From: Stenotrophomonas maltophilia
GTDB lineage: Bacteria; Pseudomonadota; Gammaproteobacteria; Xanthomonadales; Xanthomonadaceae
NCBI RefSeq assembly: GCF_006970445.1
Contig: NZ_CP033877.1
Span: 4,286,750 to 4,350,749, forward strand
Direction of reading: 5' to 3'
Length of the DNA stretch: 64,000 nucleotides
Part shown: positions 29,449-56,753 of the stretch, piece by piece
Numbering within the stretch: position 1 is the stretch's first letter
Layout: each line of letters opens with the position of its first letter
The notes under the pieces: model-generated
Told to the model about the DNA's origin: nothing
Databases searched by the model: none
What the model saw: the letters and a program-made list of their open reading frames with translations, nothing else
Program-made: the position numbers and the translations under genes

Positions 29449-30431
29449 CCGAAGTCCCCGAGCTGCCGGCGGCCGCCAATGCCCGCCTGATTGAACGCGT
29501 CGATGCCATCCGCGATGCCATCGGCCACGCCTTCATCGGCCAGGCCGAAGTGCTGGACCAGATCCTGGTGGCGCTGTTGGCCGGTGGCCACGTGCTGATC
29601 GAGGGCGTGCCCGGTCTGGGCAAGACCCTGCTGGTGCGTGCGCTGGCACAGGCCCTGGAACTGGATTACGGCCGCGTGCAGTTCACCCCCGACCTGATGC
29701 CCAGCGACGTCAGTGGCCACGCGGTGTACGACCCGAAGAGCGAGAGCTTCAAGATCCGCCGCGGCCCGGTGTTCACCAACCTGCTGCTGGCCGACGAGAT
29801 CAATCGTGCGCCGGCCAAGACCCAGTCGGCACTGCTGGAAGTGATGCAGGAAGGCCAGGTGACCATCGAAGGCAAGGCCTTCACCCTGGCACCGCCGTTC
29901 ATGGCGCTGGCCACGCAGAACCCGCTGGAGCAGGAAGGCACCTACCCGTTGCCGGAAGCACAGCTGGATCGTTTCCTGCTGAAGGTGCTGATCGACTACC
30001 CGCAGCTGGAGGACGAGAAGCGCATGGTGACCGCGATCACCAGTGGCCGTGCCGCCAGCGATTTCGACCTGAGCCAGGTGCCACGTGTACTGGGGGCTGG
30101 CGAGCTGCTGGAACTGCAGCGCGCGACCGCGGCGATCACCGTCGATGACGAAGTGATCGACTACGCAGTGCGCATCGTCGCGGCGACCCGCCAGTGGCCG
30201 GGCATCGCGGTCGGCGCTGGCCCGCGCGGCAGCATCGCGCTGGTGCGTGCCTCGCGCGCGCAGGCGGTGCTGGCCGGCCGCGACTTCGTCACTCCGGACG
30301 ATGTGCGCGACATCGCGCGCCCCGCGCTGCGCCACCGCATCGCGCTGGCCCCGGAACTGCAGATCGAAGGCCAGGACGCCGACGATGTACTGGGCGCGCT
30401 GCTGGCCAAGGTGGAAGCACCGCGCCGATGA
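29445..30431 (+). CDS. MoxR family AAA+ ATPase
   Basis: A 328-residue AAA+ ATPase. Walker A is 'EGVPGLGKT', Walker B is 'LLLADEINRAPAKTQSALLE', sensor 1 is 'ALATQNPLEQEGTYPLPEAQ' and the C-terminal lid includes 'GAGPRGSIALVRASRAQA'. MoxR proteins act as chaperones that activate VWA- or DUF58-containing partners, often for metal insertion or envelope stress. Its partner is very likely the adjacent DUF58 protein, whose start overlaps its stop. Confidence 0.93.
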   Translation: MTEVPELPAAANARLIERVDAIRDAIGHAFIGQAEVLDQILVALLAGGHVLIEGVPGLGKTLLVRALAQALELDYGRVQFTPDLMPSDVSGHAVYDPKSESFKIRRGPVFTNLLLADEINRAPAKTQSALLEVMQEGQVTIEGKAFTLAPPFMALATQNPLEQEGTYPLPEAQLDRFLLKVLIDYPQLEDEKRMVTAITSGRAASDFDLSQVPRVLGAGELLELQRATAAITVDDEVIDYAVRIVAATRQWPGIAVGAGPRGSIALVRASRAQAVLAGRDFVTPDDVRDIARPALRHRIALAPELQIEGQDADDVLGALLAKVEAPRR

Positions 30432-31726
30432 GGCCGGCCCCGCTGCTGCTGGCGCTGCTGCTGGCCTGGGCTGCCCTGGGCGGCCTGGTGCTGGGTGGGT
30501 TGCTGCCGCGCTGGAGCTGGGCGCTCGCGGCGCTGGCGATTGCCGTGCCGGCGCTGATGGATCTGTGGCGGCAGTCGCGGCGCCCGTCGCCGCATGTACA
30601 GCGCGAACTACCCGAAGCGCTGGCGCTGGGCGTGCGCCGCGAGGCGGCGCTGCGGTTGCAGGCAGACGCGTCGATGAGCGTAGAGGTGTTCGACCTGGTG
30701 CCCGGCGGCTGGCCGCTGGAAGCGCTGCCGCAGCGCGTGCGCCTGCAGGCGGGCACCGCTGCCACCCTGCACTATCACCTGCAGCCGCTGCAGCGTGGGC
30801 ACTTCCGCTTCGAGGGCGTGCACCTGCGCATGCGCTCGCCGTGGCGCCTGTGGTGGCAGCAACGCACGCTGCCGCCCGCGCTGGACGTGCGGGTCTATCC
30901 GAACTTCGTGCCGCTCACCCGCTTTGCGTTGTTCAGTGCCGACCAGGCCTCGCGGCTGGTTGGTGCGCACGTGAAGCGCCGCCGTGGTGAAGGCACCGAC
31001 TTCCACCAGATGCGCGAGTACCGCATCGGCGACAGCCTGCGCCAACTCGACTGGAAGGCCACCGCGCGTGCGCGCAAGCTGATCTCGCGCGAATACCAGG
31101 ACGAGAAGAACCAGCAGCTGCTGCTGATGCTCGACAGTGGCCGGCGCATGCTGGCCAGCGAAGGCGGACTCTCGCACTTCGACCACGCATTGAACGCCTC
31201 GCTGGTGGTGGCCTACCTGGCGCTGCGCCAGGGCGATGCCGCCGGCCTGTTCGCTGCTGGTGGTGAACGCCGCTGGGTGGCGCCGCAGCGCGGCATGGGC
31301 ACCGTCGAGCACCTGCTGCGCGCCAGCTACGACCTGCAGCCGCGCGCGGTGGCCACCGATTACCTGGCCGCCGCCACAGAAGTGTCGCTGCGCCAGCGCC
31401 GGCGTGCGCTGGTGATGCTGGTCAGCAACGTGCGCGACGAGGACATCGAAGACCTGCTGGCGGCGGTGCGCCTGCTGCAGCGGCGCCACCTGGTGTGCGT
31501 GGCCAGCCTGCGCGAGCGCGAGCTGGACGGCGCACTGGAGGGTGAGGTGCAGACGCTGGAGGACGCCACCCAGGCCGGTGCCGCAGCGCTGTACCTGCAG
31601 CAGCGCGCGAAGGCGCATGAAGCGCTGCGCAGCGAGAAGGTGATGGTGCTCGACGTGACCGCCGATGCCCTGCCGGGCGCGCTGGTAGAGCGCTACCTGG
31701 CGGTGAAGCGCGAAGGTCTGCTCTGA
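30428..31726 (+). CDS. DUF58 domain (VWA-like) membrane protein
   Basis: A 432-residue protein with two N-terminal membrane helices, an extracytoplasmic beta-rich part, then the DUF58 signature 'GEGTDFHQMREYRIGDSLRQ' followed by 'DWKATARARKLISREYQDE'. A von Willebrand-like metal site follows ('LLLMLDSGRRM'). It is the last gene of the cluster and the expected client or partner of the MoxR ATPase. A long array of palindromes begins 15 bases after its stop. Confidence 0.88.
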   Translation: MRPAPLLLALLLAWAALGGLVLGGLLPRWSWALAALAIAVPALMDLWRQSRRPSPHVQRELPEALALGVRREAALRLQADASMSVEVFDLVPGGWPLEALPQRVRLQAGTAATLHYHLQPLQRGHFRFEGVHLRMRSPWRLWWQQRTLPPALDVRVYPNFVPLTRFALFSADQASRLVGAHVKRRRGEGTDFHQMREYRIGDSLRQLDWKATARARKLISREYQDEKNQQLLLMLDSGRRMLASEGGLSHFDHALNASLVVAYLALRQGDAAGLFAAGGERRWVAPQRGMGTVEHLLRASYDLQPRAVATDYLAAATEVSLRQRRRALVMLVSNVRDEDIEDLLAAVRLLQRRHLVCVASLRERELDGALEGEVQTLEDATQAGAAALYLQQRAKAHEALRSEKVMVLDVTADALPGALVERYLAVKREGLL

Positions 31727-31740
31727 TACCAACGATCGCT

Positions 31741-32494
31741 CTGGTGGGTGCCAACCTTGGGTGGCACGGAACCCACAGCGCCGATCAAGCATCTACCAAC
31801 AACGGCTGCCGGCCAGCGGCCGGCACTACCCATGCAACAGCCGGCACATCTCTCTGGTGGGTGCCAACCTTGGGTGGCACGGAACCCACAGCGCCGACCA
31901 AGGTCGGCATCTACCAGCACCGGCTGCCGGCCAGCGGCCGGCACTACCCCTGCGGCAATCGGCGCATCGCTCTGGTGGGTGCCAACCTTGGGTGGCACGG
32001 AACCCACAGCGCCGACCAAGGTCGGCATCTACCAACAACGGCTGCCGGCCAGCGGCCGGCACTACCCCTGCGGCAATCGGCGCATCGCTCTGGTGGGTGC
32101 CAACCTTGGTTGGCACGGAATCCACAGCGCCGACCAAGGTCGGCATCTACCAGCACCGGCTGCCGGCCAGCGGCCGGCACTACCCCTGCAACAGCCGACG
32201 CATCGCTCTGGTGGGTGCCAACCTTGGGTGGCACGGAACCCACAGCGCCGACCAAGGTCGGCATCTACCAACAACGGCTGCCGGCCAGCGGCCGGCACTA
32301 CCCCTGCAACAACCGCTGCATCGCTCTGGTGGGTGCCAACCTTGGGTGGCACGGAACCCACAGCGCCGATCAAGCATCTACCAGCAACGGCTGCCGGCCA
32401 GCGGCCGGCACTACCCATGCAGCAGCCGGCACATCGCCCGGGTAGGTGCCAACCTTGGTTGGCACGAAACCCACAGCGCCGACCAAGGCCCGCA
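31741..32494. repeat. Tandem array of a 118-bp composite SMAG unit (6.5 copies)
   Basis: Units start at 31741, 31854, 31972, 32090, 32208, 32326 and 32439 (partial). Four internal units are exactly 118 bp; the first and sixth are 113 bp because GACCAAGGTCGG is shortened to GATCAA, which breaks one hairpin. Each full unit has three palindromes: GTGCCAACC-TTGG-GTGGCAC, GCCGACC-AA-GGTCGGC and GCCGGCC-AGC-GGCCGGC. The first is in forward and the other two in reverse GTAG orientation. The array fills the entire gap between convergent genes and touches the stop of the zinc-ribbon gene. Confidence 0.95.
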
Positions 32495-33154
32495 TCACCC
32501 CTGCAGCAATCGCCGCTGCAGCCGCTCCACCGCTCGCTGCAGCAGCACCCGGTTGCGGGCCAGCTTCATCCACTGCGGCAGGCGCGAGAACATGGAGCCA
32601 TTGGTGACGCCCGCGCGCTCGCGCAGAGGCGCGGCGGCATAATCGTGCAGTGCCTGCAGATGGGCCTCGTTGTAGGCCCACAGCACGCCCGCCGCCGTCT
32701 TTTCGACCAACCGCAGCGGCAGGCCGAAATGCGGGTCGATCGCCTCATTGCCACGCCATCGCGACAGCGTGACCTCCACCTCGCTGCTACGTCCGCACTG
32801 ACTGCAGTCCGCCGCCAGCGTCCGCAGTGGCGGCGTCGCACGTGCACGATGCACTTCAGCGCTTACCCACTTGTGGCCGCAGTAGCCGCAAGGCCGGTAG
32901 CCGCCGTAGCGCACCGGTCCCACCCAGTCACCCGGGCCACAACGACTGCAGCCGCAGCCTCCGTTCAGTGCTTCGCTGCAGCCCAGGCAGCGGAAGCGTC
33001 GCGATTCCGACGTACCCACCACCCAGCCGGGGGTATCGCAGCGGTGGCAACGCACCGCGATACGGTCGGCATAGCGCCACAGGGCGTGGCCGTCATCCAG
33101 ATGCCGACCCGGCAGCGGCGCAGGCCGCAGGTCGCGATTGCGCCGCACCGTCAT
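32495..33154 (-). CDS. Cysteine-rich zinc-ribbon protein in ygiBC-like operon
   Basis: A 219-residue soluble protein whose first 125 residues carry five Cys pairs ('CHRC', 'CLGC', 'CSRC', 'CGYC', 'CSQC'), consistent with two or more zinc ribbons. The C-terminal part is basic and helical ('LARNRVLLQRAVERLQRRLL'). No enzyme signature is seen; similar proteins are annotated as TFIIB-type zinc-ribbon proteins. The start overlaps the stop of the glutathionylspermidine synthase-like gene (ATGA), so it belongs to that operon. The stop abuts the 118-bp array. Confidence 0.75.
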   Translation of the reverse strand: MTVRRNRDLRPAPLPGRHLDDGHALWRYADRIAVRCHRCDTPGWVVGTSESRRFRCLGCSEALNGGCGCSRCGPGDWVGPVRYGGYRPCGYCGHKWVSAEVHRARATPPLRTLAADCSQCGRSSEVEVTLSRWRGNEAIDPHFGLPLRLVEKTAAGVLWAYNEAHLQALHDYAAAPLRERAGVTNGSMFSRLPQWMKLARNRVLLQRAVERLQRRLLQG

Positions 33155-34332
33155 CAGACGTAGATCCGCGTCGGCGCCTCATCAACGATCGCGTGCGGCA
33201 CGAAGCGCGCACTGTCGCGGGTGATCGCGCTGTCGTCCTCGCGGATGCCGATGCCGCAGGCGCGGTCGCCCACCACCCAGCTGCCGATCAGCGGATAGCC
33301 GCCTTCGAAGTGGGTCAGCGGATGGGCGCGCTGGATGATCGCCGGGCCATCGTAGGGACCGTCGCTGCGCTGGGTACTGCCATCGGCCAGGTGCATCTCG
33401 ATGTTGGCACCTTCGCGCGAGAACAGCGGCTTGCGCACCCAGCCCGACGCCAGCGTGCTGCCGTCGTCGAAGTGCGCTTCCAGCAGGTTCGGATGACCCA
33501 CGTTGCGCTGCCACAGCAGCGGCAGGATGCCCTTGTTGCTCAGCACCGCCTTCCAGGCCGGTTCCAGCAGCTGCACGCCCGAACCGGGCAGCGCGCGGCC
33601 GAACTCTTCGGCCATCAGGTCTTCCAGCGGATACAGCTTGAACAGCGTGCCGATCACCGAGTCGTCCAGCGCGGTGAAACGGCCATCCTCGGACAGACCG
33701 ATGTCCTCGATGGCGATGGCCTGGCCATGCAGACCGGCCTGCGAGGCGCAGTCGCGCAGGTAATCGACGGTGCCACGGTCTTCTTCGGAACTGCCCACCG
33801 CGCTGAAGTACAGCGGCGGTGGCAACTGCGTGGCCAGCTCGCCGAAACGCTCGACCAGCGCCTCGTGGATCGCGTTGAACTGGTCGGCGTGCTGCGGCAG
33901 GCGACCGGCATTGCGCTGGTCTTCCAGCCACTGCCACTGGAAGAAGCTGGCCTCGAACAGCGAGGTCGGCGTGTCGTAGTTCAGTTCGTACAGCTTGGCC
34001 GGACCGGTGCCGTCGTAGGCCAGGTCCAGGCGGCCATAGAGGTGTGGCTGGCGCTGGCGCCAGCTGTCGGCGATCCAGTCGCGGTAGTGCGACGGAATCG
34101 CCAACTGGTCCATCAACCGTTCGCTGCCGATGACATCACCGACCAGGTCCAGCGCCATCTGGTGCAGCTCGGCGCTGGGGTCTTCGATGTCCTGTTCGAT
34201 CTGGCGCAGGGTGAACGCGTAGTACGCGCTTTCATCCCAGTACGGCTGGCCGTCGATGGTGTGGAAGCGGAAACCCGCCTCTTCCGCGCGTGCCCGCCAC
34301 TGGGCACGCTCGGCAATCCGGATGCGCTGCAT
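33154..34332 (-). CDS. ygiC: Glutathionylspermidine synthase-like ATP-grasp protein (YgiC)
   Basis: A 392-residue protein of the GSP_synth (PF03738) family, covering the ATP-grasp synthetase half only; the amidase domain of GspSA is absent. Recognisable parts are 'GRLDLAYDGTGPAKLYELNY', 'DTPTSLFEASFFQWQWL', 'EPAWKAVLSNKGILPLLW' and 'KPLFSREGANIEM'. E. coli YgiC and YjfC are the counterparts and are thought to ligate a peptide-like substrate with ATP; true glutathionylspermidine synthesis has not been shown for them. It follows the DUF1190 lipoprotein gene by 7 bases, the same order as ygiB-ygiC. Confidence 0.85.
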   Translation of the reverse strand: MQRIRIAERAQWRARAEEAGFRFHTIDGQPYWDESAYYAFTLRQIEQDIEDPSAELHQMALDLVGDVIGSERLMDQLAIPSHYRDWIADSWRQRQPHLYGRLDLAYDGTGPAKLYELNYDTPTSLFEASFFQWQWLEDQRNAGRLPQHADQFNAIHEALVERFGELATQLPPPLYFSAVGSSEEDRGTVDYLRDCASQAGLHGQAIAIEDIGLSEDGRFTALDDSVIGTLFKLYPLEDLMAEEFGRALPGSGVQLLEPAWKAVLSNKGILPLLWQRNVGHPNLLEAHFDDGSTLASGWVRKPLFSREGANIEMHLADGSTQRSDGPYDGPAIIQRAHPLTHFEGGYPLIGSWVVGDRACGIGIREDDSAITRDSARFVPHAIVDEAPTRIYV

Positions 34333-34339
34333 GGGTCAG

Positions 34340-34912
34340 TCAGCCGCCGTAGCTGCCGCTGGTGCTGCGGCGTTCGCTGCTGTTGCCGAAGCCACCACGG
34401 CTGGCCGTGACCGCACGGTTCGGTTCACTGGTGACCGGGGCCAGGCCGGCCTTGCCTGCGCCGATGCCGCTGGCGGTGTTGAGGCCACCGCTGCCGCCCG
34501 GGGCCGGGCGCGCCCAACCGGCGCTCTTGTCCTGGTAGGCCGGCGACGCCGCCGGCGCCTGCGGGGCCAGGCCGCCGCGGTTGCTCAGCATCTGCGACAT
34601 GAAGAAGCCCATCATCATCGGGCCGATGAACGAGGTACCGGCCGAGGTGTGCTGCTGCACGCACTGTTCCGGCTTGTAGTCCTTCTCGCAGGCTTCCTTG
34701 CTGGCGTACTTCGGCGCCGCATCGGCAGCCTGCTTCTGCGCTTCGGCGAAGGCGTTGCGGCACGACGACGGATCGCCGGTGGCCTCGGTGCAGGACTCGA
34801 CCGAGGTGTACAGGCCTTCCTGCACCTTCACCTCCGGCTCCTTCTGGCAGGCGGTGAACAGCAGCGGCGCGGCGCTCATCAGCAGCAGCGCAGTGGTGCG
34901 GGAACGTTTCAT
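34340..34912 (-). CDS. ygiB: DUF1190 lipoprotein (YgiB-like)
   Basis: A 190-residue predicted lipoprotein, lipobox 'PLLFTACQKE', with the DUF1190 core containing paired cysteines ('SVESCTEATGDPSSCRNAF', 'SKEACEKDY', 'EQCVQQ') and a Gly/Ser-rich tail ('GGFGNSSERRSTSGSYGG'). The start at 34912 leads directly into the signal peptide; the in-frame extension to 35008 is not signal-like. In E. coli ygiB lies before ygiC as here. Function is unknown; the cysteine spacing suggests disulfides in the periplasm. Confidence 0.85.
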   Translation of the reverse strand: MKRSRTTALLLMSAAPLLFTACQKEPEVKVQEGLYTSVESCTEATGDPSSCRNAFAEAQKQAADAAPKYASKEACEKDYKPEQCVQQHTSAGTSFIGPMMMGFFMSQMLSNRGGLAPQAPAASPAYQDKSAGWARPAPGGSGGLNTASGIGAGKAGLAPVTSEPNRAVTASRGGFGNSSERRSTSGSYGG

Positions 34913-35024
34913 GGCCTCATGCCTTGTCGACGGATCAATGCCCCAATGATGCCAAATCCGGACCAGCAACCGGAATCGGCAAAGTGGGAAAGATGAACGG
35001 CCTTTCATTTTCGTCGATCTCCAT

Positions 35025-35073
35025 CATCCACGCATGGCGTGGATTACCGTGTCGACCAGGGTCGACACCTACC
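35025..35073. repeat. Two palindromes (ATCCACGC and GTGTCGACC types)
   Basis: ATCCACGC-ATG-GCGTGGAT (35026-35044) and the reverse-oriented SMAG-like GTGTCGACC-AG-GGTCGACACCTACC (35049-35073). Confidence 0.75.
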
Positions 35074-35122
35074 AAAGTCAACGCAGAGCGCCGGCCCCGA
35101 CAGATCGCAGGAAACTGTCGAA

Positions 35123-35224
35123 GGCGGGGTGGGTCAGGTTGCGGGGGCGTGAGCGCCATGGATGGCGCGACCGAGGCTACATGGACGTACTTGCGCCGTC
35201 CCCCACAGCCGGACCCACCCCGCC
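35123..35224. repeat. 102-bp long imperfect palindrome
   Basis: Terminal arms GGCGGGGTGGGTC (35123-35135) and GACCCACCCCGCC (35212-35224) are perfect inverted repeats. Inside are G-rich/C-rich arms (GCGGGGGCG with CGCCGTCCCCCAC) and a GCGCCATGGATGGCGC hairpin. The size is that of a miniature palindromic mobile element rather than a terminator. The rest of the 484-base gap (34913-35396) holds only SMAG-type palindromes and the ilvD leader. Confidence 0.7.
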
Positions 35225-35255
35225 ATCCCACGGATAGCCCAGCTGTTGCTGTTGA

Positions 35256-35282
35256 GGTTGCCGGCCAGCGGCCGGCACTACC
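35256..35282 (-). repeat. SMAG palindrome upstream of ilvD
   Basis: GGTTGCCGGCC-AGC-GGCCGGCACTACC, reverse orientation. A further GCCGGGCGCAGCCCGGCC hairpin follows directly. Confidence 0.8.
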
Positions 35283-35396
35283 GCGGGTGCCGGGCGCAGC
35301 CCGGCCGGACCACCTCCGGTGGTTGCAGCAGCAACCGAAAAAATTGGCCATGATCAGGCGACCCCCACGTCGTACGGCCCGCCCGTTCCGCCAGCC

Positions 35397-37235
35397 ATGC
35401 CCGAATACCGTTCCCGCACCTCCACCGCCGGCCGCAACATGGCCGGCGCCCGCGCCCTGTGGCGTGCCACCGGCATGAAGGACGGCGACTTCCACAAGCC
35501 GATCATCGCCATCGCCAACTCCTTCACCCAGTTCGTGCCCGGCCACGTGCACCTGAAGGACCTCGGCCAATTGGTCGCGCGCGAGATCGAGCAGGTCGGC
35601 GGCGTCGCCAAGGAATTCAACACCATCGCCGTGGACGACGGCATCGCGATGGGCCACGACGGCATGCTGTATTCGCTGCCCAGCCGCGAGATCATCGCCG
35701 ACGCCGTGGAATACATGGTCAACGCGCACTGCGCCGACGCGCTGGTGTGCATCAGCAACTGCGACAAGATCACCCCCGGCATGCTGATGGCCGCGCTGCG
35801 CCTGAACATCCCGGTGGTGTTCGTCTCCGGCGGGCCGATGGAAGCGGGCAAGACCAAGCTGTCCGAGCACAAGCTGGACCTGGTCGATGCGATGGTGGTG
35901 GCTGCCGATGACAGCGCCTCCGATGAGAAGGTTGCCGCGTTCGAGCGCAGCGCCTGCCCCACCTGCGGTTCCTGCTCGGGCATGTTCACCGCCAACTCGA
36001 TGAACTGCCTGACCGAAGCGCTGGGCCTGTCGCTGCCCGGCAACGGCACCACGCTGGCCACCCACGCCGACCGCGAGGCACTGTTCCGCCGTGCCGGCCG
36101 CCTGATCGTTGAGCTCTGCCACCGCTGGTATGGCGGCGAAGATCCCAGCGCGCTGCCGCGCGGCATCGCCACCCAGGCCGCGTTCGCCAATGCGATGACC
36201 CTGGACATCGCCATGGGCGGCTCCACCAACACCATCCTGCACCTGCTGGCCGCAGCACAGGAAGCGGAGGTCGACTTTGACCTGACCCACATCGACGCGC
36301 TGTCGCGGCGCGTGCCGCAGCTGTGCAAGGTGGCGCCGAACACGCCGAAGTACCACATCGAGGACGTGCACCGTGCCGGCGGCGTGTTCGGCATTCTCGG
36401 TGAACTGGACCGCGCCGGCCTGCTCGATGCCACGGTGCCGACCGTGCACAGCGCCAGCCTGGCCGAAGCGCTGGAACGCTGGGACGTGGTGCGCTGTGAC
36501 AACGACACCCTGCACACCTTCTTCAAGGCCGGCCCGGCCGGTATTCCCACCCAGGAGGCCTTCAGCCAGGCCACGCGCTGGCCGACACTGGACGTGGACC
36601 GCGCCGAGGGCTGCATCCGTTCGCTGCAGCACGCGTACTCACTGGAAGGCGGCCTCGCCGTGCTGCGCGGCAACCTGGCCGTCGATGGCTGCGTGGTGAA
36701 GACCGCCGGCGTGGACGAATCGATCCACGTGTTCGAGGGCCCCGCGCGCGTCTACGAAAGCCAGGACGCCGCCGTCGCCGGCATCCTCGCCGACGAAGTG
36801 CAGCCGGGTGAGGTAGTGGTGATCCGCTACGAAGGGCCGAAGGGCGGCCCCGGCATGCAGGAAATGCTGTACCCGACCAGTTACCTGAAGTCGAAGGGCC
36901 TGGGCAAGCAGTGCGCACTGCTCACCGACGGCCGCTTCTCCGGGGGGACCTCGGGCCTGTCGATCGGCCACGTCTCGCCGGAAGCCGCCAGCGGCGGTGT
37001 CATCGGCCTGGTGGAGAACGGCGACCGCATCCGCATCGACATCCCCGCCCGCCGCATCGACCTGCTGCTGGATGAGGCCGCGCTGGCCAAACGTCGCACC
37101 GATGCCGATGCGCGCGGCTGGAAGCCACGCGCACCGCGCCCGCGAAAGGTCACCAGCGCGTTGAAGGCCTACGCCCTGCTCGCCACCAGCGCCGACAAGG
37201 GCGCCGTACGCAACACCGCCCTGCTCGGCGATTGA
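35397..37235 (+). CDS. ilvD: Dihydroxy-acid dehydratase
   Basis: A 612-residue Fe-S dehydratase converting 2,3-dihydroxy-isovalerate and -methylvalerate to the keto acids in valine and isoleucine synthesis. Cluster cysteines lie in '[12 protein letters not shown]' and '[19 protein letters not shown]', and the carbamylated-lysine region and C-terminal '[20 protein letters not shown]' are intact. Length matches E. coli IlvD (616). ATG at 35397 ('[10 protein letters not shown]') is the family start. No other ilv gene lies in the window. Confidence 0.97.
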
Positions 37236-37245
37236 TCCCCGTGCG

Positions 37246-37323
37246 GTAGTGCCGGCCGCTGGCCGGCATCTGCACAATGCGTCTGCACGTCAATGAGGTT
37301 GCCGGCCAGCGGCCGGCGCTACC
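37246..37323. repeat. Inverted pair of SMAG palindromes
   Basis: GTAGTGCCGGCC-GCT-GGCCGGCAT and GTTGCCGGCC-AGC-GGCCGGCGCTACC, about 28 bases apart, between ilvD and the DUF418 gene. Confidence 0.85.
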
Positions 37324-37343
37324 GATCCGGTACGCTGCGCGGC

Positions 37344-38516
37344 ATGACCCATCGCCCGCCGCGCCAACCCCTCCTCGATGCCCTGCGTGGGTTCGCGCTG
37401 CTCGGCGTATTCCTGGTCAACCTGCGCTTCTTCTCGCTCGATGCGTTGATGACCGAGGCCGCGCAGCAGGCGCTGCCCAGCGCGGCACTCGACCACACCA
37501 TCCGTACCGGCATGGAATGGCTGGTGGACATGAAGGCGATCACCCTGTTCTCGCTGCTGTTCGGCATGGGCGTGGCGATGCAGATGGATGGCAATGCGCA
37601 GGGCAGCATGGCTGCGCACCTGCGCCGCATGGGCGTGCTGCTGGTGATCGGCCTGCTGCATTCGATACTGCTGTGGTGGGGTGACATCCTGCTGGTGTAT
37701 GCGCTGGTGGGCCTGCTGCTGCCGTTGTTCCGTCACCTGGGTGATCGCGCACTGCTGTTCAGCGGGGTGTTCATTGCCCTGTTGCTGCCACCGCTGCTGT
37801 CGCCGTGGATCCGCGAATGGGTCGCCCTGCTCACACCGCGCGCGCCGATGAACGCCATGGCGCTCGATGCTCTGGCGCACGGCACGCTGGCGCAGGCGTG
37901 GTGGCACAACCTGCAGCTGGCCGCATGGCTGAAGCTGAGCAACTGGGCGCTGCTGTTCTTCGTGCTCGGCCGCTTCCTGCTGGGCTACTGGGCCGGCCGT
38001 CGCGGGCTGCTGCTGCAGCCGCAGGCGCATCTGCCGCTGCTGCGCTCGATCGCCATCGGCAGCCTGCTGCTGACGGCGGTGTTCCTGTGGATCGATGCCC
38101 AGGCCGATGCGCTCAAACAGGCATCGCCGGCGCTGCGGGCGGGCGTGCCCGGCTACCTGCTGCGCGTGTCCTATCGCGTTGCGCCGCTGGCACTGGGCAT
38201 TGCTGCGGCGGCGATCTTCACCCTGCTCTATCTGCGCCCGTGGGCCGAGCGCATGCTGCGCGTGTTCGTGCCAGCCGGGCGCATGGCACTGAGCAACTAC
38301 CTGCTGCAAAGCGCGATCTGCGTGCCGCTGTTTGCCGGCTTCGGGCTGGGTATCGGCCCGCAGCACGGGCTGTGGCCAGTGCTGCTGGTGGCGGCGGTGG
38401 TGTTCCCGCTGCAACTGTGGGCGAGCGCGTGGTGGCTGCGTGGCCATCGCTTCGGGCCGGTCGAATGGCTGTGGCGCAGCGCCAGCGAAGGGCAATGGCT
38501 GCCGCTGCGGCGCTAG
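37344..38516 (+). CDS. DUF418 family membrane protein
   Basis: A 390-residue polytopic protein with roughly eight to ten membrane helices. The family pattern is seen in 'LLDALRGFALLGVFLVNL' at the start, 'ITLFSLLFGMGVAMQ', and the DUF418 block 'PAGRMALSNYLLQSAICVPL' near the C-terminus. It is related to acyltransferase-3 and YeiB proteins, with unknown substrate. The start follows the SMAG pair by 20 bases; the next gene follows by 27, so the two may be co-transcribed. Confidence 0.85.
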   Translation: MTHRPPRQPLLDALRGFALLGVFLVNLRFFSLDALMTEAAQQALPSAALDHTIRTGMEWLVDMKAITLFSLLFGMGVAMQMDGNAQGSMAAHLRRMGVLLVIGLLHSILLWWGDILLVYALVGLLLPLFRHLGDRALLFSGVFIALLLPPLLSPWIREWVALLTPRAPMNAMALDALAHGTLAQAWWHNLQLAAWLKLSNWALLFFVLGRFLLGYWAGRRGLLLQPQAHLPLLRSIAIGSLLLTAVFLWIDAQADALKQASPALRAGVPGYLLRVSYRVAPLALGIAAAAIFTLLYLRPWAERMLRVFVPAGRMALSNYLLQSAICVPLFAGFGLGIGPQHGLWPVLLVAAVVFPLQLWASAWWLRGHRFGPVEWLWRSASEGQWLPLRR

Positions 38517-38543
38517 AGTGTGCGCGGTCTGCAGGAAGCCCCC

Positions 38544-39137
38544 ATGAAATTCTCCCGCGTGGTCCTGCTGCTGGCACTGGCCGGCGCCTCCGCCCCGGCG
38601 CGGGCCGACGACTGCCGGTTCGACGATCACGCCGGACTGCAGGCGATGACGCCCGAGGCGTTCAACCGCGGGCCTGGCGATGGCTGGGACGCACTGATCG
38701 AGCGCTCGGGCTGCCAGCTGGAGATCGCTGACCTGTTCGCCGCCTACCGCCGACAGTCCAAGGCGGCCGGGCATACCGAGCTGACCTGGCATGAGGCGCA
38801 GCTACGCGCCGACGCAGGGCAGCGCGATCCCGCCAGCGCCTTGATGCGGCTGACCTACAGGCCCCGCAACGCTGATCCGGAGGGATGGAACCTGTACGTC
38901 GACGCCACCATTGCGTTTCTCGATGACGACCTGCCGGCACTGCGCCGCATTCGCGCGCGACTGGCTGCACTGCCACCGCCGGCGGGCAGCGGGCTCAACG
39001 ATGGGTCGGCGCTGATGCAGGCCGTGGATGGCGCGCAGAGGGCGCCTTGGCCGCCACGGTTGAAGATCGTCGATGCCCTCATCCGCTGCATGTACCAGCC
39101 CTACGCGCTGGCGTCCGGATCGTGCCCGGAACCGTAG
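38544..39137 (+). CDS. Periplasmic hypothetical protein, 197 aa
   Basis: Not recognised. A cleavable signal peptide is likely ('VVLLLALAGASAPARADD', cut after Ala-Arg-Ala). The mature protein has four cysteines ('DDCRF', 'SGCQLEI', 'IRCMYQ', 'GSCPEP') that could form two disulfides, and is mainly helical. It follows the DUF418 gene and converges on dinG with 12 bases between the stops. Confidence 0.65.
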   Translation: MKFSRVVLLLALAGASAPARADDCRFDDHAGLQAMTPEAFNRGPGDGWDALIERSGCQLEIADLFAAYRRQSKAAGHTELTWHEAQLRADAGQRDPASALMRLTYRPRNADPEGWNLYVDATIAFLDDDLPALRRIRARLAALPPPAGSGLNDGSALMQAVDGAQRAPWPPRLKIVDALIRCMYQPYALASGSCPEP

Positions 39138-39149
39138 TACGGCCCCCGG

Positions 39150-41252
39150 TCAGCCGATCACGCGCTTGAACGGCGGCAGCGCGTCGATGATGCGCTTGCC
39201 GTAGCGGCGGGTCAGCAGCCGCGAATCGAGAATGACCACGCGGCCGGTGTCGGTGGAGGTACGGATCAGGCGGCCGGCAAACTGGGTCAACGTGCGCAGC
39301 GCATGCGGAATGGCGATCAGGTTGAAGGCATTGAGCCCGCGCCCCTCGAACCACTCGCTGAGGGTGGCGGTCTGCGGGTCGGTCGGCACCGCGAACGGCA
39401 CCTGGGTGATCACCACGGTGGTGCAGGCCTCGCCGGGCAGGTCGAGGCCCTCGCCGAACGAGTTCAGGCCGAACAGCACCGAGCCCTCGCCTGCCGCCAC
39501 ACGCCGCAGGTGCTCGTCGATCAGGCGGGTCTTGGACATCTCGCCCTGCACCAGCACCTGCTTGCGGCGCGCGGCCGACATCAGCCCGGCCACCTTCTCC
39601 ATCTTCCAGCGCGAGGTGAACAACACCATCGAACCCTTGGCCCAGTCCAGTTCGGTGTCCAGATAGCGCGCCACTTCACGCGGGTGGCCCTCGCGGTCGT
39701 CCGGCGTGACCGGGAACTTCGGCACGATCAGCTCGGCCTGGTTGGGCAGGTCGAACGGCGAAGACAGCGAAACCATCTCGGCCTCTTCCGGAATACCGTT
39801 GTCGATCGCCAGCGACTGGAAGTCGCCACCGCCGGTCAGCGTCGCCGAGGTCATCACCACCGAGTCCACTTCATCCCACAGCAGCTTGCGCAGCACGTGC
39901 GCGGCCGACACCGGCGAGCCGTGCAGCACCAGGTCGCCGTCGCGGGTGGCGGTGACCCAGCGTGCCATCGGCGGCGCGCCGTCCTTGTCCTCGCGGCGCC
40001 AGGCCTGCCACAGGTTGTACTGCTGCTCGATCATCTCCAGCGCCATGCCCAGGTTGCGCTGCAGGCGCTCGCGCGCGGCATCGTCCGGCTTGCCCTTGGC
40101 TACCTGTGCGGTGGCGGCGTGCGCCCAGTTGTAGAGGCTGCGGGTATCGTCAGCCAGCGCCTCGATCGGCTCGCGCCAGGCCTCGGGCAGGCGCCCGTTG
40201 GCCGCGCGCCACATCGGCTCTTCGTCCGCCGGCGCCGGCATCCACACCCGCTCGACGTGGTCACGGAACGCACGCAGCTGCTTGGCCACGTTGCTGGCGA
40301 CCTCGATCGCTTCGTTCGGCAGCAGGTTGCCCAGCCGATCCTTGTCGACCGCGCGGTAGGCACCGGCAATCAGGATCTGCAGGCGGCCGGTGCGCTTGGC
40401 CATCTCGTCCAGCGCCAGGCTGGCCGCACCCTGGTCGATCGCCACGTTGCCGATGTGATGGCCTTCGTCCAGCACCAGCAGCATGTCCGACGGCGGCGCG
40501 ATCAACGGCTGGCCGTTGTCGCTGTCGCCGATCGACAGCGCCGACAGCAGCAGCGCGTGGTTGGTGACCACGATCTGCGCATCGCGCACGGTGTTGCGTG
40601 AGCGCAGCACCGCGCACTGCGCCGAATAGGCGCAGCGGCGCCCGGCGCAGCCCGAAGCCGGCGTGGTGATGCGGCTGCGCAGGCCGGGGCTGATGGTCTC
40701 CGGTGCGTTGTCGATATCGCCGTCCCAGCTGCCGCCGGTGAAGGCGTCAGTCAGGCGCTTGGCGATGTCCATCTCGATCGGCGCCAGCGGCCGGTCGAAC
40801 AGTGGCGCGTCATCCTCGAACATGCCGCCCTGCGAGCCCTCGCCCTGCGCTTCGGCGGCATTGCGCGTGCACAGGTAGCGGGTACGGCCCTTGGCCAGCG
40901 CGACGGTTGCTTCCAGGCCGGTGGCCTTGAGGAAGTTCGGGATATCGCGCTCGACCAGCTGCGACTGCAGCGCCACGGTACCGGTACTGATCACCAGCTT
41001 CTTCTTGCTGGCCAGCGCAATGGGTACGCCTGCGGTGAGATAGCCCAGGCTCTTACCGACGCCGGTGGGCGCCTCGACCACGCCGACGCCGCCACTTTTC
41101 GACAGCGCGCGCGACACCACGCCGATCATCTGGCTCTGCGAGCGGCGGGTGGAAAATCCGGGCGTATTGGCCTGCAGCGTCGTGTACGCCTTGCGGATTG
41201 CATCCTTCAAGGTGTCATCGAGCGTGCGCGGAGCGGCGACGGTTTCGGTCAC
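39150..41252 (-). CDS. dinG: ATP-dependent DNA helicase DinG
   Basis: A 700-residue XPD-like superfamily 2 helicase with an Fe-S cluster. Walker A is 'VEAPTGVGKSLGY', the DEAH box reads 'LVLDEGHHIGN', and cluster cysteines lie in 'TRYLCTRN' and 'SGCAGRRCAYSAQCAVL'. It unwinds 5'-3' and resolves R-loops and structured DNA. The start is GTG at 41252 ('MTETVAAPRTL'), since the longer frame is a low-complexity Arg-rich stretch. Length is close to E. coli DinG (716). Confidence 0.92.
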   Translation of the reverse strand: MTETVAAPRTLDDTLKDAIRKAYTTLQANTPGFSTRRSQSQMIGVVSRALSKSGGVGVVEAPTGVGKSLGYLTAGVPIALASKKKLVISTGTVALQSQLVERDIPNFLKATGLEATVALAKGRTRYLCTRNAAEAQGEGSQGGMFEDDAPLFDRPLAPIEMDIAKRLTDAFTGGSWDGDIDNAPETISPGLRSRITTPASGCAGRRCAYSAQCAVLRSRNTVRDAQIVVTNHALLLSALSIGDSDNGQPLIAPPSDMLLVLDEGHHIGNVAIDQGAASLALDEMAKRTGRLQILIAGAYRAVDKDRLGNLLPNEAIEVASNVAKQLRAFRDHVERVWMPAPADEEPMWRAANGRLPEAWREPIEALADDTRSLYNWAHAATAQVAKGKPDDAARERLQRNLGMALEMIEQQYNLWQAWRREDKDGAPPMARWVTATRDGDLVLHGSPVSAAHVLRKLLWDEVDSVVMTSATLTGGGDFQSLAIDNGIPEEAEMVSLSSPFDLPNQAELIVPKFPVTPDDREGHPREVARYLDTELDWAKGSMVLFTSRWKMEKVAGLMSAARRKQVLVQGEMSKTRLIDEHLRRVAAGEGSVLFGLNSFGEGLDLPGEACTTVVITQVPFAVPTDPQTATLSEWFEGRGLNAFNLIAIPHALRTLTQFAGRLIRTSTDTGRVVILDSRLLTRRYGKRIIDALPPFKRVIG

Positions 41253-41388
41253 GCCGGGAATTACCGTGGCTGGATCAGGCCGGTCATTGTCGCATGGCCG
41301 GCCGCATTCACCGTTGCCGGCACCCTGAACGGGCCAGCGGCGACGCTCGGCGGCGGCCACGGTCCGAAGCCCGCGCCGCTCCAGGGCG

Positions 41389-41416
41389 AGATACGCCGGG
41401 CATGCCCGGCGCTACC
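41389..41416. repeat. Palindrome GCCGGGCATGCCCGGC with CTACC end
   Basis: A SMAG-like hairpin in reverse orientation between dinG and the small membrane protein gene. Confidence 0.6.
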
Positions 41417-41418
41417 GC

Positions 41419-41772
41419 TCAGGACGCCGGGATGGAACGGGTACGCAGCAGGCGCACCAGCGCCCACACCAGCAGGACCACGCCAATGGCCTCGACCATC
41501 GCCAGTGCGAAATGCACCACACCCAGGATGGCGCTCATGCCCGAGATGGCGCTGAAGTTGCCATTGCTGACCAGCCACATCGGCAGCATGCCCGCGGCCA
41601 GGCCGCCCAGGCTGGACAGCAGCAACAGCAGCAGGCCGACCAGCGCGCCGGTGCGGGTGGCATCGCGCGGCGCACCGACCACCCAGACCAGGCCGACGCA
41701 CAGCGCGATCAGCACCGGCAGGCGCACGCCGACCATGCTCAGCACGGTCACCATCAGGGCAGTGCTGTCCAT
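41419..41772 (-). CDS. Small membrane protein, 117 aa
   Basis: Unrecognised protein with four hydrophobic segments ('MVTVLSMVGVRLPVLIALCV', 'LVGLLLLLLSSLGGLAAGML', the 'ILGVVHFALAMVEAIGVVLL' region) and few charged residues. It lies 3 bases after aroE and is probably co-transcribed with it. No functional motif seen. Confidence 0.65.
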   Translation of the reverse strand: MDSTALMVTVLSMVGVRLPVLIALCVGLVWVVGAPRDATRTGALVGLLLLLLSSLGGLAAGMLPMWLVSNGNFSAISGMSAILGVVHFALAMVEAIGVVLLVWALVRLLRTRSIPAS

Positions 41773-41775
41773 CGA

Positions 41776-42621
41776 TCAGTCCTCGCCTGCCAGCACCGCC
41801 GAACCCTGCCGCAGCGACTGGTAGACCTCGCCGGTCTGCGGGCGCACGCCGTGCCACTGCAGGAAGCTCTCGGCGGCCTGCTCGACCAGCATGCCCAGGC
41901 CGTCGACGGTATTGCGGCACTGCGCCGCACGGGCCCAGGCCAGGAAGGCGATGGCTGCCTCGCCGTAGTTCAGGTCGACGGCGGTGGTCATCGAATTGAC
42001 CAGCGACAGCGGCAGCTTGAACTCGACGTCGCGGTCACGGCCGGCGGAGGTGGCGTTGACGATCAGCTCGAAGTCGCCCAGGTCGCGCAGGTCTTCCCAG
42101 TAGCGGCTGATCGCGCGGCCCGGTTCACCCATGGCATCGATCAGTTCGTCGGCACGTTCCGGCGTGCGGTTGACCACCACCAGTTCGGTGATGCCGGCAT
42201 CGAGCAGCGCCGGGGCGACACTGCGCGCCGAGCCACCGGCACCGATCATCAGCACGCGACGGCCACGCAGGTCCAGGCCGTGGCGGTCGGTCAGGTCGCG
42301 CACCAGGCCGATGCCATCGGTGGTGTCACCGTGCCAGCGGTCGCCCTTGCGCAGCAGCGTGTTGACCGAGCCGGCGCGGCGCGCCCGTGCGGTCAGCGTG
42401 GTGCACACCGAGAACGCGGTTTCCTTGTGCGGCAGGGTGACGTTGGCACCGACACCGCCTTCGGCAGCGAAGGCCTCCAGGCCGGCCAGGAACGCATCCG
42501 GGGCCAGGTCGATCGCGCGGTAGTCGATGGCGATGCCTTCCTGGCGACCGAACGTCGCATGGATCTGCGGCGACTTCGAGTGGGCAACGGGGTGTCCGAA
42601 GACGGCGTAACGGTCGGTCAT
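41776..42621 (-). CDS. aroE: Shikimate dehydrogenase (NADP+)
   Basis: A 281-residue enzyme reducing 3-dehydroshikimate to shikimate. The substrate site '[14 protein letters not shown]' and 'NVTLPHKE' (catalytic Lys) are in the N-terminal domain, the NADP loop is '[11 protein letters not shown]' and the cofactor Arg is in 'VVNRTPERA'. The start '[10 protein letters not shown]' is the family start. It is divergent from the beta-propeller gene with 49 bases between the starts, so both promoters must be compact or shared. Confidence 0.95.
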
Positions 42622-42670
42622 GGAATCCTCAAGCTGGCTAGACTGATGCTCTGTTCGTGCATGGAACCGG

Positions 42671-43543
42671 ATGATGCGCATCACCCCGCCCCTGCTGGTG
42701 CTCGCCGCCAGTCTACTCTCTGCCCCCGTGGCGATGGCGTTGAACGAGTACGGCATCGAAGGCATGGGCGTGGTCTCGACCCGCGCCGACGAGGGTCGCG
42801 CCACGATCAGCGCCGATGGCCAGCGCATCGTCTTCGCCCGCCGTGGCGAGGCCGGCTGGGGCCTGTGGCAGGCACGCGTGATCGATGGCCGCTGGCAGCA
42901 GGCACAGGCGCTGCCGGTGGGCGTGGCTGGCGAGGCCCGCGATCCCTACTTCAGCCGTGACGGCCGCTGGCTGCTGTTCGCGGCCGGCCGCGAGGGCGCG
43001 CTGGCGCTGTACCGCGCCGCATTGGCCGCCGACGGCCAGCTGGGCCATGCGCAGGCGCTGGCCGGTGATGGCGGTCGCCGGGAAGAGCGCGGGCCGGCCC
43101 TGAGCGCGGATGGCAAGCAGCTGATGTTTGCCCGCCAGCAGGGCCGTGGCGCCGGCTGGGACCTGTTCGTGGCGACGCTGGATGCGCAGGGCCTGCGCGG
43201 CCCGGCCAGCGCACTGAGCGCGTTGAACAGCGCCGACGACGAGACCGACGGTGACTGGCTGGGCCATGACGGCGCCGTGGTGTTCAGCCGCGGCAGCGGC
43301 AGTACCGCGCAGGTCTGGAGCAGCGATTGTGCGTGGAGCGGCGTGGCGCTGCAGCCGCTGGGACTGTCGTTCAACCAGGCCGGCGGCTGGACCGGCGCGC
43401 CGGTGATCGACAACGCCAAGCCGGGCGAGATGGTGGTCGCCAGCAGCGCGGCGAAGGCACCACGTGCCGGCGGCGTGGATGTGTACCGGTTGGCGGTGCC
43501 GAAGGTGGCGGCGGTGGCTGGGTGCGTGCCGAGCGCTCGGTAG
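42671..43543 (+). CDS. TolB-like beta-propeller periplasmic protein
   Basis: A 290-residue exported protein with an N-terminal signal ('[16 protein letters not shown]'). It contains repeated WD40-like PD40 blades: '[16 protein letters not shown]', '[15 protein letters not shown]', '[15 protein letters not shown]'. Blades of this sort bind partner proteins, as in TolB, but length allows only about four, so the propeller is short or incomplete. The start may be the Met at 42674. Its TAG stop is the head of a SMAG palindrome. Confidence 0.75.
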
Positions 43544-43620
43544 ATGCCAACCTTGGTTGGCCTGTGTGAAAGCGCCAACCAAGGTTGGCGGCTACCAGTA
43601 GATCCACGCCATGCGTGGAT
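43540..43620. repeat. Three SMAG-family palindromes, first supplies a stop codon
   Basis: GTAGATGCCAACC-TT-GGTTGGC (its TAG ends the upstream gene), the reverse copy GCCAACC-AA-GGTTGGCGGCTACC, and GTAGATCCACGC-CAT-GCGTGGAT. Confidence 0.85.
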
Positions 43621-43632
43621 GGCGCCCGCGAA

Positions 43633-43671
43633 GGGGTCAGAGCCCCTTCCTGCGGAAAGGGATCCGACCCC
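43633..43671. repeat. 39-bp GGGGTCAGAGCCC...GGGATCCGACCCC palindrome, copy 1
   Basis: Imperfect inverted repeat GGGGTCAGAGCCCCTT-CCTGCGG-AAAGGGATCCGACCCC. A second copy is at 52026-52064 with a different loop. Confidence 0.8.
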
Positions 43672-43683
43672 GGGCATTGCCCG

Positions 43684-43953
43684 TCAGCGCGACAACACCT
43701 TGGCGCGCAACTGCTCGTACTCCACTTCGCTCAGCTGGCCGTTGTCCTTGCGCTGGTTCAACGCGGCCAGCTCGGCCTGCACGTTGTCCGGCAGGGCCTG
43801 CTCACGGGCCACGTGGCGAGCAGCGGAGAGCTGCTCCGGCGGGCGCTTGCCGGCCCGCCAGGCGGCGATGAAGACACCGACGATGATGGCGCCGAACACC
43901 AGCGTACCGATGCCCCAGATCAACCATTGCATCCATCCCAGTTCGGGTCCCAT
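43684..43953 (-). CDS. Small membrane protein with SHOCT domain
   Basis: An 89-residue protein: one membrane helix (residues about 9-32, 'WLIWGIGTLVFGAIIVGVFI') and a C-terminal SHOCT motif ('ALNQRKDNGQLSEVEYEQLR'). SHOCT is a short oligomerisation domain found at the ends of many membrane proteins. It lies just downstream of hemB on the other side of a 32-base gap, on the same strand. Confidence 0.8.
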   Translation of the reverse strand: MGPELGWMQWLIWGIGTLVFGAIIVGVFIAAWRAGKRPPEQLSAARHVAREQALPDNVQAELAALNQRKDNGQLSEVEYEQLRAKVLSR

Positions 43954-43985
43954 CGCGTATTCCTCCGTCTATCGTGGCGCTATTG

Positions 43986-45912
<1,927 letters not shown>

Positions 45913-46035
45913 GGGGCAGCCGCGCCGGGCGCGGATTCACAGGCACGCGGGGGGCTCGCGCAGCCGTTCATTGTACGCCCCTGCCCGGCCCGCGGCCGTG
46001 TACCTGCGACGCCCTGTCGCACCCGGCGACGCGGC

Positions 46036-46284
46036 TCAGATCACGCCGCCACCCAGGCCCAGGCGCAGGATGCCGACCACCACCACGATGCCGTTCAGCA
46101 CCAGCCCGGCCCAGGCCCGGCCACGCTTGGTCGGGTGGGTGAACAGGATGCCCAGCGCGGCGATCACCGCGCCCACGGCGGCGAACGGGATCAGGAACCA
46201 GTTGCCCCAGCCCAGCAGCGGAATCAGCGCCAGGATCATCCACAACAGCGCCAGTACGCCCCACAACAGACTGATCACACCCAT
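46036..46284 (-). CDS. Small two- to three-helix membrane protein, 82 aa
   Basis: Two to three hydrophobic segments ('LLWGVLALLWMILALIPLLG', 'IPFAAVGAVIAALGILF', 'GLVLNGIVVVVGILRLGL') joined by 'THPTKRGRAW', the arrangement of DUF4190-like small proteins. No function known. Confidence 0.7.
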   Translation of the reverse strand: MGVISLLWGVLALLWMILALIPLLGWGNWFLIPFAAVGAVIAALGILFTHPTKRGRAWAGLVLNGIVVVVGILRLGLGGGVI

Positions 46285-46470
46285 TCCGCTCTCCCGCAGT
46301 TGGTTCCTGTCTGTCCACCATAGTCGTTCCCGCGGTCGCCGCCTACTGCCGTTGGCGGGGCTGTCACCGGCAGCGTGCTAGCGTGCTGCCGTGCGTGCTC
46401 TGGGCCGGGTGTTGGCGCCGATTCAGAGTGGCCCGCCGATGATCGCAACCAGTCCTACAGGGGTCGTGCC

Positions 46471-46935: not shown

Positions 46936-46950
46936 CCCTCCCGGGTCAAC
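46931..46950. terminator. Hairpin overlapping the lipoprotein stop codon
   Basis: GTTGACCC/GGGTCAAC inverted repeat without a T-run; likely 3'-end stabiliser or weak terminator. Confidence 0.5.
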
Positions 46951-46954
46951 GCCG

Positions 46955-47268
46955 GTAGTGCCGGCCGCTGGCCGGCAACCTCAGGAATGCTTCCTGCGCC
47001 AAGGGAATGCCGGCCAGCGGCCGGCACTACCCCTGCAACAACCGACGCATCGTTCTGGTAGGTGCCAACCTTGGTTGGCACGAAACCCGCGGCGCCGACC
47101 AAGGTCGGCATCTACCAACGGCGATTGCCGGCCAGCGGCCGGCACTACCCCTGCAACAACCGACGCATCGTTCTGGTAGGTGCCAACCTTGGTTGGCACG
47201 AAACCCGCGGCGCCGACCAGGGTCGGCATCTACCAACGGCGATTGCCGGCCAGCGGCCGGCACTACCC
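46955..47268. repeat. Second 118-bp composite SMAG array (about 2.5 units)
   Basis: An inverted SMAG pair (46955-47030) leads into two units starting at 47055 and 47173, exactly 118 bp apart, each with the same three palindromes in the same order as the array at 31741. The spacer CCCCTGCAACAACCGACGCATCG is almost identical to that of the first array. The block fills the 341-base gap between convergent genes. Confidence 0.93.
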
Positions 47269-47276
47269 GATGATGC

Positions 47277-55921: not shown

Positions 55922-55931
55922 GTCGCTTTCG
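55900..55931 (+). repeat. Left REP copy flanking RAYT
   Basis: AAAAGGGGACGGAGGGGATTAAGTCG followed by CTTTCGAC; overlaps the last codons and stop of the AraC gene. Confidence 0.85.
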
Positions 55932-56020
55932 ACTCATCCGACACGGCTTCGCGGCGTTGCCTGATGTCCTGCTCCGCGGCCGCGATGACAGGCTGGAAAC
56001 CCCTTCAGTCTTCGAATCCC

Positions 56021-56731: not shown

Positions 56732-56748
56732 TCCCCTCCGTCCCCTTT
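56720..56748 (-). repeat. Right REP copy flanking RAYT (inverted)
   Basis: GAAACGACTTAATCCCCTCCGTCCCCTTTT, reverse complement of the left copy; its ACT-TAA provides the last Thr and stop of the transposase. Confidence 0.85.
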
Positions 56749-56753
56749 TTGGG

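What the first reader, a model, noticed from the sequence alone, without database searches (positions are those of the whole stretch)
31741..32494. Tandem array of a 118-bp unit made of three nested SMAG palindromes
Single SMAG repeats are scattered, but here three palindromes plus spacers are amplified as one fixed unit six to seven times. Four internal units are exactly 118 bp and the two variant units lack the same hairpin half. Transcription from the DUF58 operon would enter about 20 consecutive hairpins. Such an array is a plausible hot spot for copy-number variation, and could act as a strong terminator/processing block or a protein-binding platform.
Basis: seen in the sequence. Interest (0 to 1): 0.72.

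Follow-up and report, generated by a model that had tools for sequence, protein, structure and literature searches.

The report
Tandem repeat array between convergent genes
A stretch of small hairpin repeats between two bacterial genes, together with the tail of one gene, has been copied head-to-tail about seven times; related bacteria carry anything from none to twelve copies, so it is a variable repeat of a kind already known in this group, with the unusual twist that single copies also turn up at two neighbouring sites.

Summary
The array is real (31735-32496; about 6.5 copies of 118 bp) and far beyond chance. It belongs to a published class: SMAG/REP palindromes repeated in tandem with flanking DNA in S. 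maltophilia, used for strain typing since 2008. Primers of the 12 published typing loci do not match this window.

What I add comes from comparing 81 loci. (1) The unit is not a bare palindrome trio: it is a whole intergenic region (a head-to-head REP pair plus a SMAG) with the last codons of the convergent gene. Four array species that lack that gene still carry its tail in their units. (2) Copy number runs up to 12 between species, and seven other relatives have different repeat units at the same site, two carrying the DUF58 gene end. (3) The unit also sits in SMAG pairs 5 and 15 kb downstream (47008-47268 is one). All 29 junction matches in 91 genomes lie at these three sites, although this genome has 471 SMAGs; two other arrays tested showed no dispersal.

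Best reading: passive tandem duplication, unequal recombination and local SMAG-templated copying. A role for the SMAG transposase is not excluded. No intrinsic terminator is predicted; regulatory roles are untested.

The parts
31735..32496 (.). Locus 1: tandem array, units at 31735-31847 (113 bp), 31848-31965, 31966-32083, 32084-32201, 32202-32319 (118 bp each), 32320-32432 (113 bp), 32433-32496 (truncated)
   Evidence: TRF; repeats; unit listing; shuffle control
31979..31998 (+). First REP of a unit (GTGCCAACC..GGTGGCAC, tag GTGG), example from unit 3; seven copies, tag GTGG in six and GTAG in the seventh
   Evidence: hairpin listing
32011..32026 (-). Second REP of a unit (head-to-head partner, GCCGACC AA GGTCGGC followed by ATCTAC), example from unit 3; four intact, two with the same 5-nt loss (units 1, 6), one degenerate (unit 7)
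   Evidence: hairpin listing
32043..32065 (-). SMAG palindrome of a unit (TGCCGGCC AGC GGCCGGCA CTAC), example from unit 3; six copies, absent from unit 7
   Evidence: 471 copies within 2 mismatches in the own genome
32066..32083 (-). Gene-tail segment inside a unit (example, unit 3, somewhat diverged), related to the last codons of the convergent gene
   Evidence: compared by eye with single-copy alleles
30428..31726 (+). DUF58 gene; 8 bp separate its stop codon from the array
   Evidence: ORF (start chosen by eye); Pfam PF01882
32495..33154 (-). Convergent gene of unknown family; its 3' end borders the array; no tblastn hit in 12 of 39 nearest related loci
   Evidence: ORF; no Pfam or NCBIfam hit; tblastn
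47008..47268 (.). Locus 2: second array of the same unit, 2.2 copies, at a SMAG head-to-head pair (46955-47268) between a lipoprotein-like gene and a DUF885 gene
   Evidence: TRF; ORFs; Pfam
37246..37322 (.). Locus 3: SMAG head-to-head pair after ilvD, empty in this genome; holds one unit in G040, G060 and G033

Best explanation
The array is a tandem duplication of one complete intergenic region, not a dedicated device. Shown: single-copy alleles (DUF58 stop, REP head-to-head pair, SMAG, convergent gene) exist in related species, and the array unit is that region plus the convergent gene's last codons. Inferred: one duplication, with little or no microhomology at the joint, fused the gene tail to the start of the intergenic region; later unequal recombination between 118-bp units changed the number and partly homogenised units within a genome. 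Shown: units also sit at two SMAG pairs 5 and 15 kb downstream, joined at SMAG. Inferred: they were copied there by short-homology recombination or template switching between SMAGs on neighbouring DNA, the donor being a tandem array (SMAG-unit-SMAG). Any effect on transcript ends would be a side effect of hairpins at a convergent-gene junction.
For: Single-unit alleles in G003, G015, G024, G045 and others; gene tail in array units, also in G025, G060, G090 and G063, where tblastn finds no convergent gene. Seven of 81 loci with 1.9 to 11.9 copies. Seven other loci have different repeat units at the same site (50-302 bp), two of them (G041, G073) including the end of DUF58: repeated independent duplication. 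In a 54-unit tree the locus-1 units of the own genome, G048 and G090 each group together, with modest support. Junction motif (38 nt, up to 3 mismatches): 9 of 91 genomes, 29 matches, 21 at locus 1, 6 at locus 2, 2 at locus 3, none elsewhere; in the 118-nt search every listed match covering 104 nt or more is at these loci. Locus 2 filled in 9 of 30 and locus 3 in 3 of 30 examined. At locus 3 in G060 the right flank equals the own empty allele and keeps its GCGCTACC variant on the right of the insert, while the left SMAG has GCACTACC, placing the switch at or inside SMAG (by eye); G033 has the same pattern.
Against: Two other SMAG arrays of the same genome show no dispersal: their junctions occur at one place per genome, so local spread is not shown to be general. 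The locality argument rests on two target sites. G025 and G060 units are intermixed and G033 units split in the tree, and the own locus 2 units group with G040 locus 2, not with the own array, so donor and order of events are unclear. G003, G009 and G043 have a unit at locus 2 but no array at locus 1 now. Three of the nine filled locus 2 alleles (G003, G090, G043) have lost part of the SMAG pair and do not show a clean insertion. Distant matches of 92-93 nt at 82-83% without the tail exist in G048 and G003. SMAG homology is only about 20 bp, short for RecA-dependent recombination (recalled). G033 is a draft genome.
Confidence: 0.67

Rival explanations
1. Transposase-driven spread: the SMAG-specific REP-associated transposase (RAYT/TnpAREP) excises and inserts the composite unit as single-stranded DNA, building the tandem array and the copies at loci 2 and 3.
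For: The genome has a RAYT gene with an open 206-aa frame, flanked by SMAGs (C1:2533783-2534187). The S. maltophilia enzyme cuts a 23-nt REP with an 8-bp stem and 3-nt loop, the SMAG architecture, in vitro at CT (PMC8266576 passages). Insertions sit at SMAG.
Against: In the clearest comparisons (locus 2, G025 filled against G060 empty; locus 3, G060 filled against own empty) the DNA on both outer sides of the target SMAG is kept and no CT outside the hairpin marks the joint (by eye); the SMAG loop itself contains a CT, which I cannot exclude. 29 of 29 junction matches are local although SMAGs number 471. The RAYT next to GTAGATGCCAACC-type REPs is split into two frames here.
Confidence: 0.18
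2. Selected function: a hairpin block that ends or protects transcripts of the two convergent genes, or binds protein (gyrase, IHF and Pol I are named for E. coli REPs/BIMEs in PMC3686654, passage), kept by selection.
For: Palindromes are about four times less variable than spacers across 54 units (0.040 against 0.151, P 6e-6; 23 one-per-locus units 0.033 against 0.137, P 7e-6). Strong folding, z -8.25 and -7.53. Location between convergent genes.
Against: Most of the 81 loci have no array, and where counted outside the arrays there were 0 to 4 tagged hairpins at this site. No intrinsic terminator predicted. Low palindrome variation can also come from conversion with the 471 genomic SMAGs or from the element's own constraint.
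Confidence: 0.12
3. Assembly artefact: the repeat number is inflated or collapsed.
For: Tandem repeats are error-prone; some compared genomes are drafts with many contigs, and G034's contig ends in this region.
Against: The own genome and G048, G090, G060 and G025 are single contigs, and units of the own, G048 and G090 arrays differ from each other in sequence.
Confidence: 0.03

Closest known systems
SMAG tandem arrays of Stenotrophomonas maltophilia (Roscetto 2008, PMC2613905)
   Same: SMAG monomers or dimers repeated head-to-tail with flanking DNA, copy number differing between isolates, 12-locus typing scheme (parts 1-3 of 4 of the text read)
   Different: None of the 24 published primers has fewer than 6 mismatches in this window (strain K279a itself not examined); the unit here has three palindromes of two kinds and a gene tail, and copies at two nearby sites
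Tandem REPIN clusters of Pseudomonas fluorescens SBW25 (Bertels and Rainey 2011, PMC3116915)
   Same: [quoted passage not shown] mixed-class GI-GIII arrays; near-identical arrays at two chromosome sites (passages read)
   Different: Different REP classes; those two arrays lie on opposite sides of the chromosome, here copies are within 16 kb
GTAG REP super-family clusters (Di Nocera and co-workers 2013, PMC3733652)
   Same: Large clusters of singletons or dimers repeated in tandem with segments of flanking DNA; GTAG families 6 to 9 include the SMAGs (passages read)
   Different: The passages read do not trace the origin of a unit or its local copying

Membership tests
SMAG / GTAG REP element | GTAG (or GTGG) tag followed by a short palindrome | tested here: met
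   SMAG is identical to the published consensus on the reverse strand; first REP has tag GTGG in six copies and GTAG in one
SMAG / GTAG REP element | High copy number, mostly intergenic | tested here: met
   471 SMAG copies within 2 mismatches in the own genome; intergenic position looked at only for the sites studied
SMAG tandem array (VNTR) | Palindromes plus flanking DNA repeated head-to-tail | tested here: met
SMAG tandem array (VNTR) | Copy number differs between strains | tested here: met
   Between species-level genomes only; within a species not tested
REPIN | Two REPs in inverted orientation, tags outside, able to form one long hairpin | tested here: met
   First and second REP of each unit; the RNA fold pairs them with each other in several units
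RAYT-mobilised element | Joints at the transposase cut site (CT) near the REP | tested here: inconclusive
   No CT outside the hairpin at the joint in two filled/empty comparisons by eye, but the SMAG loop holds a CT; cut site from PMC8266576 passages
Intrinsic terminator | GC-rich stem followed by a T run | tested here: not met
   0 found at 31600-32700, shuffles mean 0.9
BIME-type protein binding platform | Binding by gyrase, IHF or Pol I | not testable with these tools
   needs binding assays

The most novel reading that the evidence does not exclude
Tandem REP arrays act as donors from which composite units, including pieces of genes, are copied into the nearest REP pairs by distance-limited template switching, so that REPs serve as local docking sites for new DNA without the REP transposase.
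Probability: 0.3. Interest if true: 0.55.

Novelty: new member of a known kind. Interest (0 to 1): 0.36.

Why it matters
It gives a traceable origin for a REP tandem array: the gene tail in the unit marks where the unit was born, so later copies elsewhere can be assigned to that source. This makes the open question of how REP clusters form and move testable at one locus with natural empty, single-copy and multi-copy alleles. Practically it is a further candidate variable-number marker for the S. maltophilia complex.

Tried and rejected
Rejected: that the three palindromes are a mobile trio on their own (the unit carries gene-derived DNA, and full-length units were found at three neighbouring sites only). 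Rejected: that the array is a published typing locus, as far as primer matches in this window show. Rejected: intrinsic terminator and known RNA family (no Rfam match at gathering score in 30000-48000). Tested and not supported as a general rule: dispersal of other SMAG arrays (two of seven other arrays seen). A 236-bp higher-order period in the own array, suggested by alternating spacers, was not supported: mean differences at lag 1 and lag 2 are 7.5 and 7.6; in G090 lag 2 is lower (5.8 against 8.2), few units. The first diversity script had a wrong SMAG segment and was redone. In some searches and 43 loci whose match was on the minus strand were not turned round; redone. The paper searches listed nothing that I saw to bear on the origin of SMAG units. 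The 2010 SMAG paper (FEMS Microbiol Lett) was not read; known only from a reference list.

Limits: one genome per species; within-strain variation not seen. All 91 genus genomes matched the DUF58 3' end, but G079 only over 23 bases; 80 relatives were fetched and 10 not (G016, G018, G021, G047, G054, G067, G071, G075, G076, G079). Loci 2 and 3 were examined only in the 30 best-matching genomes each, own included. In one search only 9 candidate regions per genome were scored and matches were cut at E 1e-18. After re-checking I raised the transposase rival from 0.15 to 0.18 and lowered the main reading from 0.70 to 0.67, because the SMAG loop holds a CT and three locus 2 alleles are not clean insertions.

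Full report
Observation. The array is as described, slightly larger: 31735-32496, period 118, 6.5 copies, TRF score 1216, against a best score of 53 in 50 single-base shuffles. Units are 113, 118, 118, 118, 118, 113 bp and a truncated seventh. Each unit is built on a head-to-head REP pair and one SMAG in the minus orientation (the seventh lacks the SMAG); 17 of 20 palindrome positions score as hairpins.

Setting. The array sits between the 3' ends of a DUF58 gene on the plus strand and an unassigned gene on the minus strand, followed by a GSP_synth-domain gene and ilvD. The genome is one contig of 4,549,249 bases. Relatives with identical contig sizes are S. maltophilia D457 (G048), SJTL3 (G060), ATCC 700475 (G003) and MDMC339 (G033); no call names the own genome, which I place with the S. 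maltophilia complex by similarity.

Origin of the unit. The DUF58 3' end matched 91 of 91 genus genomes (in G079 only 23 bases). I fetched 80 related loci. In G003, G015, G024 and others the region after DUF58 is a single unit. The unit's spacer CCCCTGCAACAACCG(A/C)CG equals the last codons of the convergent gene (RRLLQG, stop supplied by the SMAG tag), and related forms of this gene end occur without a SMAG (G017, G068, by eye), so the direction gene to unit is the likelier one. Four array species (G025, G060, G090, G063) show no such gene by tblastn in the stretch fetched but keep its tail in their units. The gene has no hit in 12 of the 39 nearest loci whose contig spans the region. So the duplicated segment ran from just after the DUF58 stop to about 20 bp inside the convergent gene.

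Copy number. Locus 1 has 11.9 copies in G048, 7.0 in G090, 6.5 here, 5.6 in G060, 5.1 in G025, 4.8 in G033 and 1.9 in G063 out of 81 loci. Seven further loci carry other units of 50 to 302 bp (G041, G073, G013, G089, G050, G051, G087), and those of G041 and G073 include the end of DUF58; G029 has a 14-bp repeat. In a tree of 54 units those of the own array, G048 and G090 each group together; G025 and G060 units are intermixed and those of G033 are split; support is modest. This fits recurrent tandem duplication with partial homogenisation.

Local copies. The 38-nt junction motif with up to 3 mismatches occurs in 9 of 91 genomes, 29 times: 21 at locus 1, 6 at locus 2 and 2 at locus 3, nowhere else (sorted by coordinates). 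In the 118-nt search every listed match of at least 104 nt is at these loci (9 candidate regions per genome scored); shorter matches without the tail occur elsewhere, up to 93 nt at 82% (G003). Locus 2 holds a unit in 9 of 30 and locus 3 in 3 of 30 examined genomes. Empty alleles in several species are a plain SMAG pair; others have different elements there. In this window the SMAG sites next downstream of the array are a single one at 35259, then locus 3, then locus 2; the genome has 471 SMAGs within 2 mismatches. With two target sites the locality is suggestive, not proven. Two other SMAG arrays of this genome showed no copies beyond one place per genome.

Joints. At locus 2, G025 (filled) keeps the outer flanks of the pair seen empty in G060. 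At locus 3, G060 keeps the right flank and GCGCTACC variant of the own empty allele, while its left SMAG has GCACTACC; G033 looks alike. The switch therefore lies at or inside SMAG, by eye. Three filled locus 2 alleles (G003, G090, G043) have lost part of the pair. No CT outside the hairpin, the kind of site used by the S. maltophilia TnpAREP in vitro (PMC8266576, passages), marks the joint, but the SMAG loop holds a CT. A RAYT gene with an open frame and SMAG flanks exists at C1:2533783-2534187; another, flanked by REPs like those of the pair, is split into two frames.

Function. No sigma-70-like or intrinsic-terminator-like site was found at 31600-32700; both strands fold better than each of 20 shuffles (z -8.25, -7.53); no Rfam match. 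Palindromes vary less than spacers, which fits function, conversion among genomic SMAGs, or both.

Known or new. Tandem SMAG arrays with flanking DNA and variable number are published (PMC2613905, parts 1-3 of 4; PMC3733652, passages), as are tandem REPIN clusters (PMC3116915, passages). Nothing I saw in these texts or in the listings traces a unit to a gene tail or to local copies. I file it as a new member of a known kind, with an informative history.

Noticed in passing
window 55900-56750: A Y1-transposase gene (269-aa frame) bounded by a terminal inverted repeat of about 26 bp (GGGGACGGAGGGGATTAAGTCG type), resembling the TIR-associated class (TIRYT) described in PMC3733652 rather than a REP-flanked RAYT (repeat seen by eye).
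   Followed up: partly
locus 3 in G024 (L190), G053 (L176), G048 (L178): A short element made of the same inverted repeats sits at or inside the SMAG pair after ilvD, apparently a small non-coding relative of the window's TIR transposase gene.
   Followed up: no
L046 2900-3200 (G025 C1, about 3 kb after DUF58): A partial unit (the REP pair with the start of the unit, without SMAG) lies near the place where this genome has the single SMAG at 35259; perhaps a fourth nearby copy.
   Followed up: no
L171 (G000 C1:1074779-1075176): RAYT gene flanked by GTAGATGCCAACC-type REPs is split between two reading frames; disrupted or a sequencing error.
   Followed up: no
window 32495-33154: The convergent gene has no Pfam or NCBIfam match, no hit in 12 of 39 nearest loci, and occurs in two divergent forms (about 79-93% and 57-62% identity): a presence/absence gene beside a REP array.
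   Followed up: partly
G000 C1: 2188642-2189055, 4192355-4192981, 4177954-4178353, 2415451-2415837, 526896-527154, 3616926-3617381, 1871083-1871522: Seven further SMAG/REP tandem arrays with periods of about 88, 238, 83, 89, 88, 100 and 220 bp; the 220-bp unit seems by eye to carry a gene end too.
   Followed up: partly
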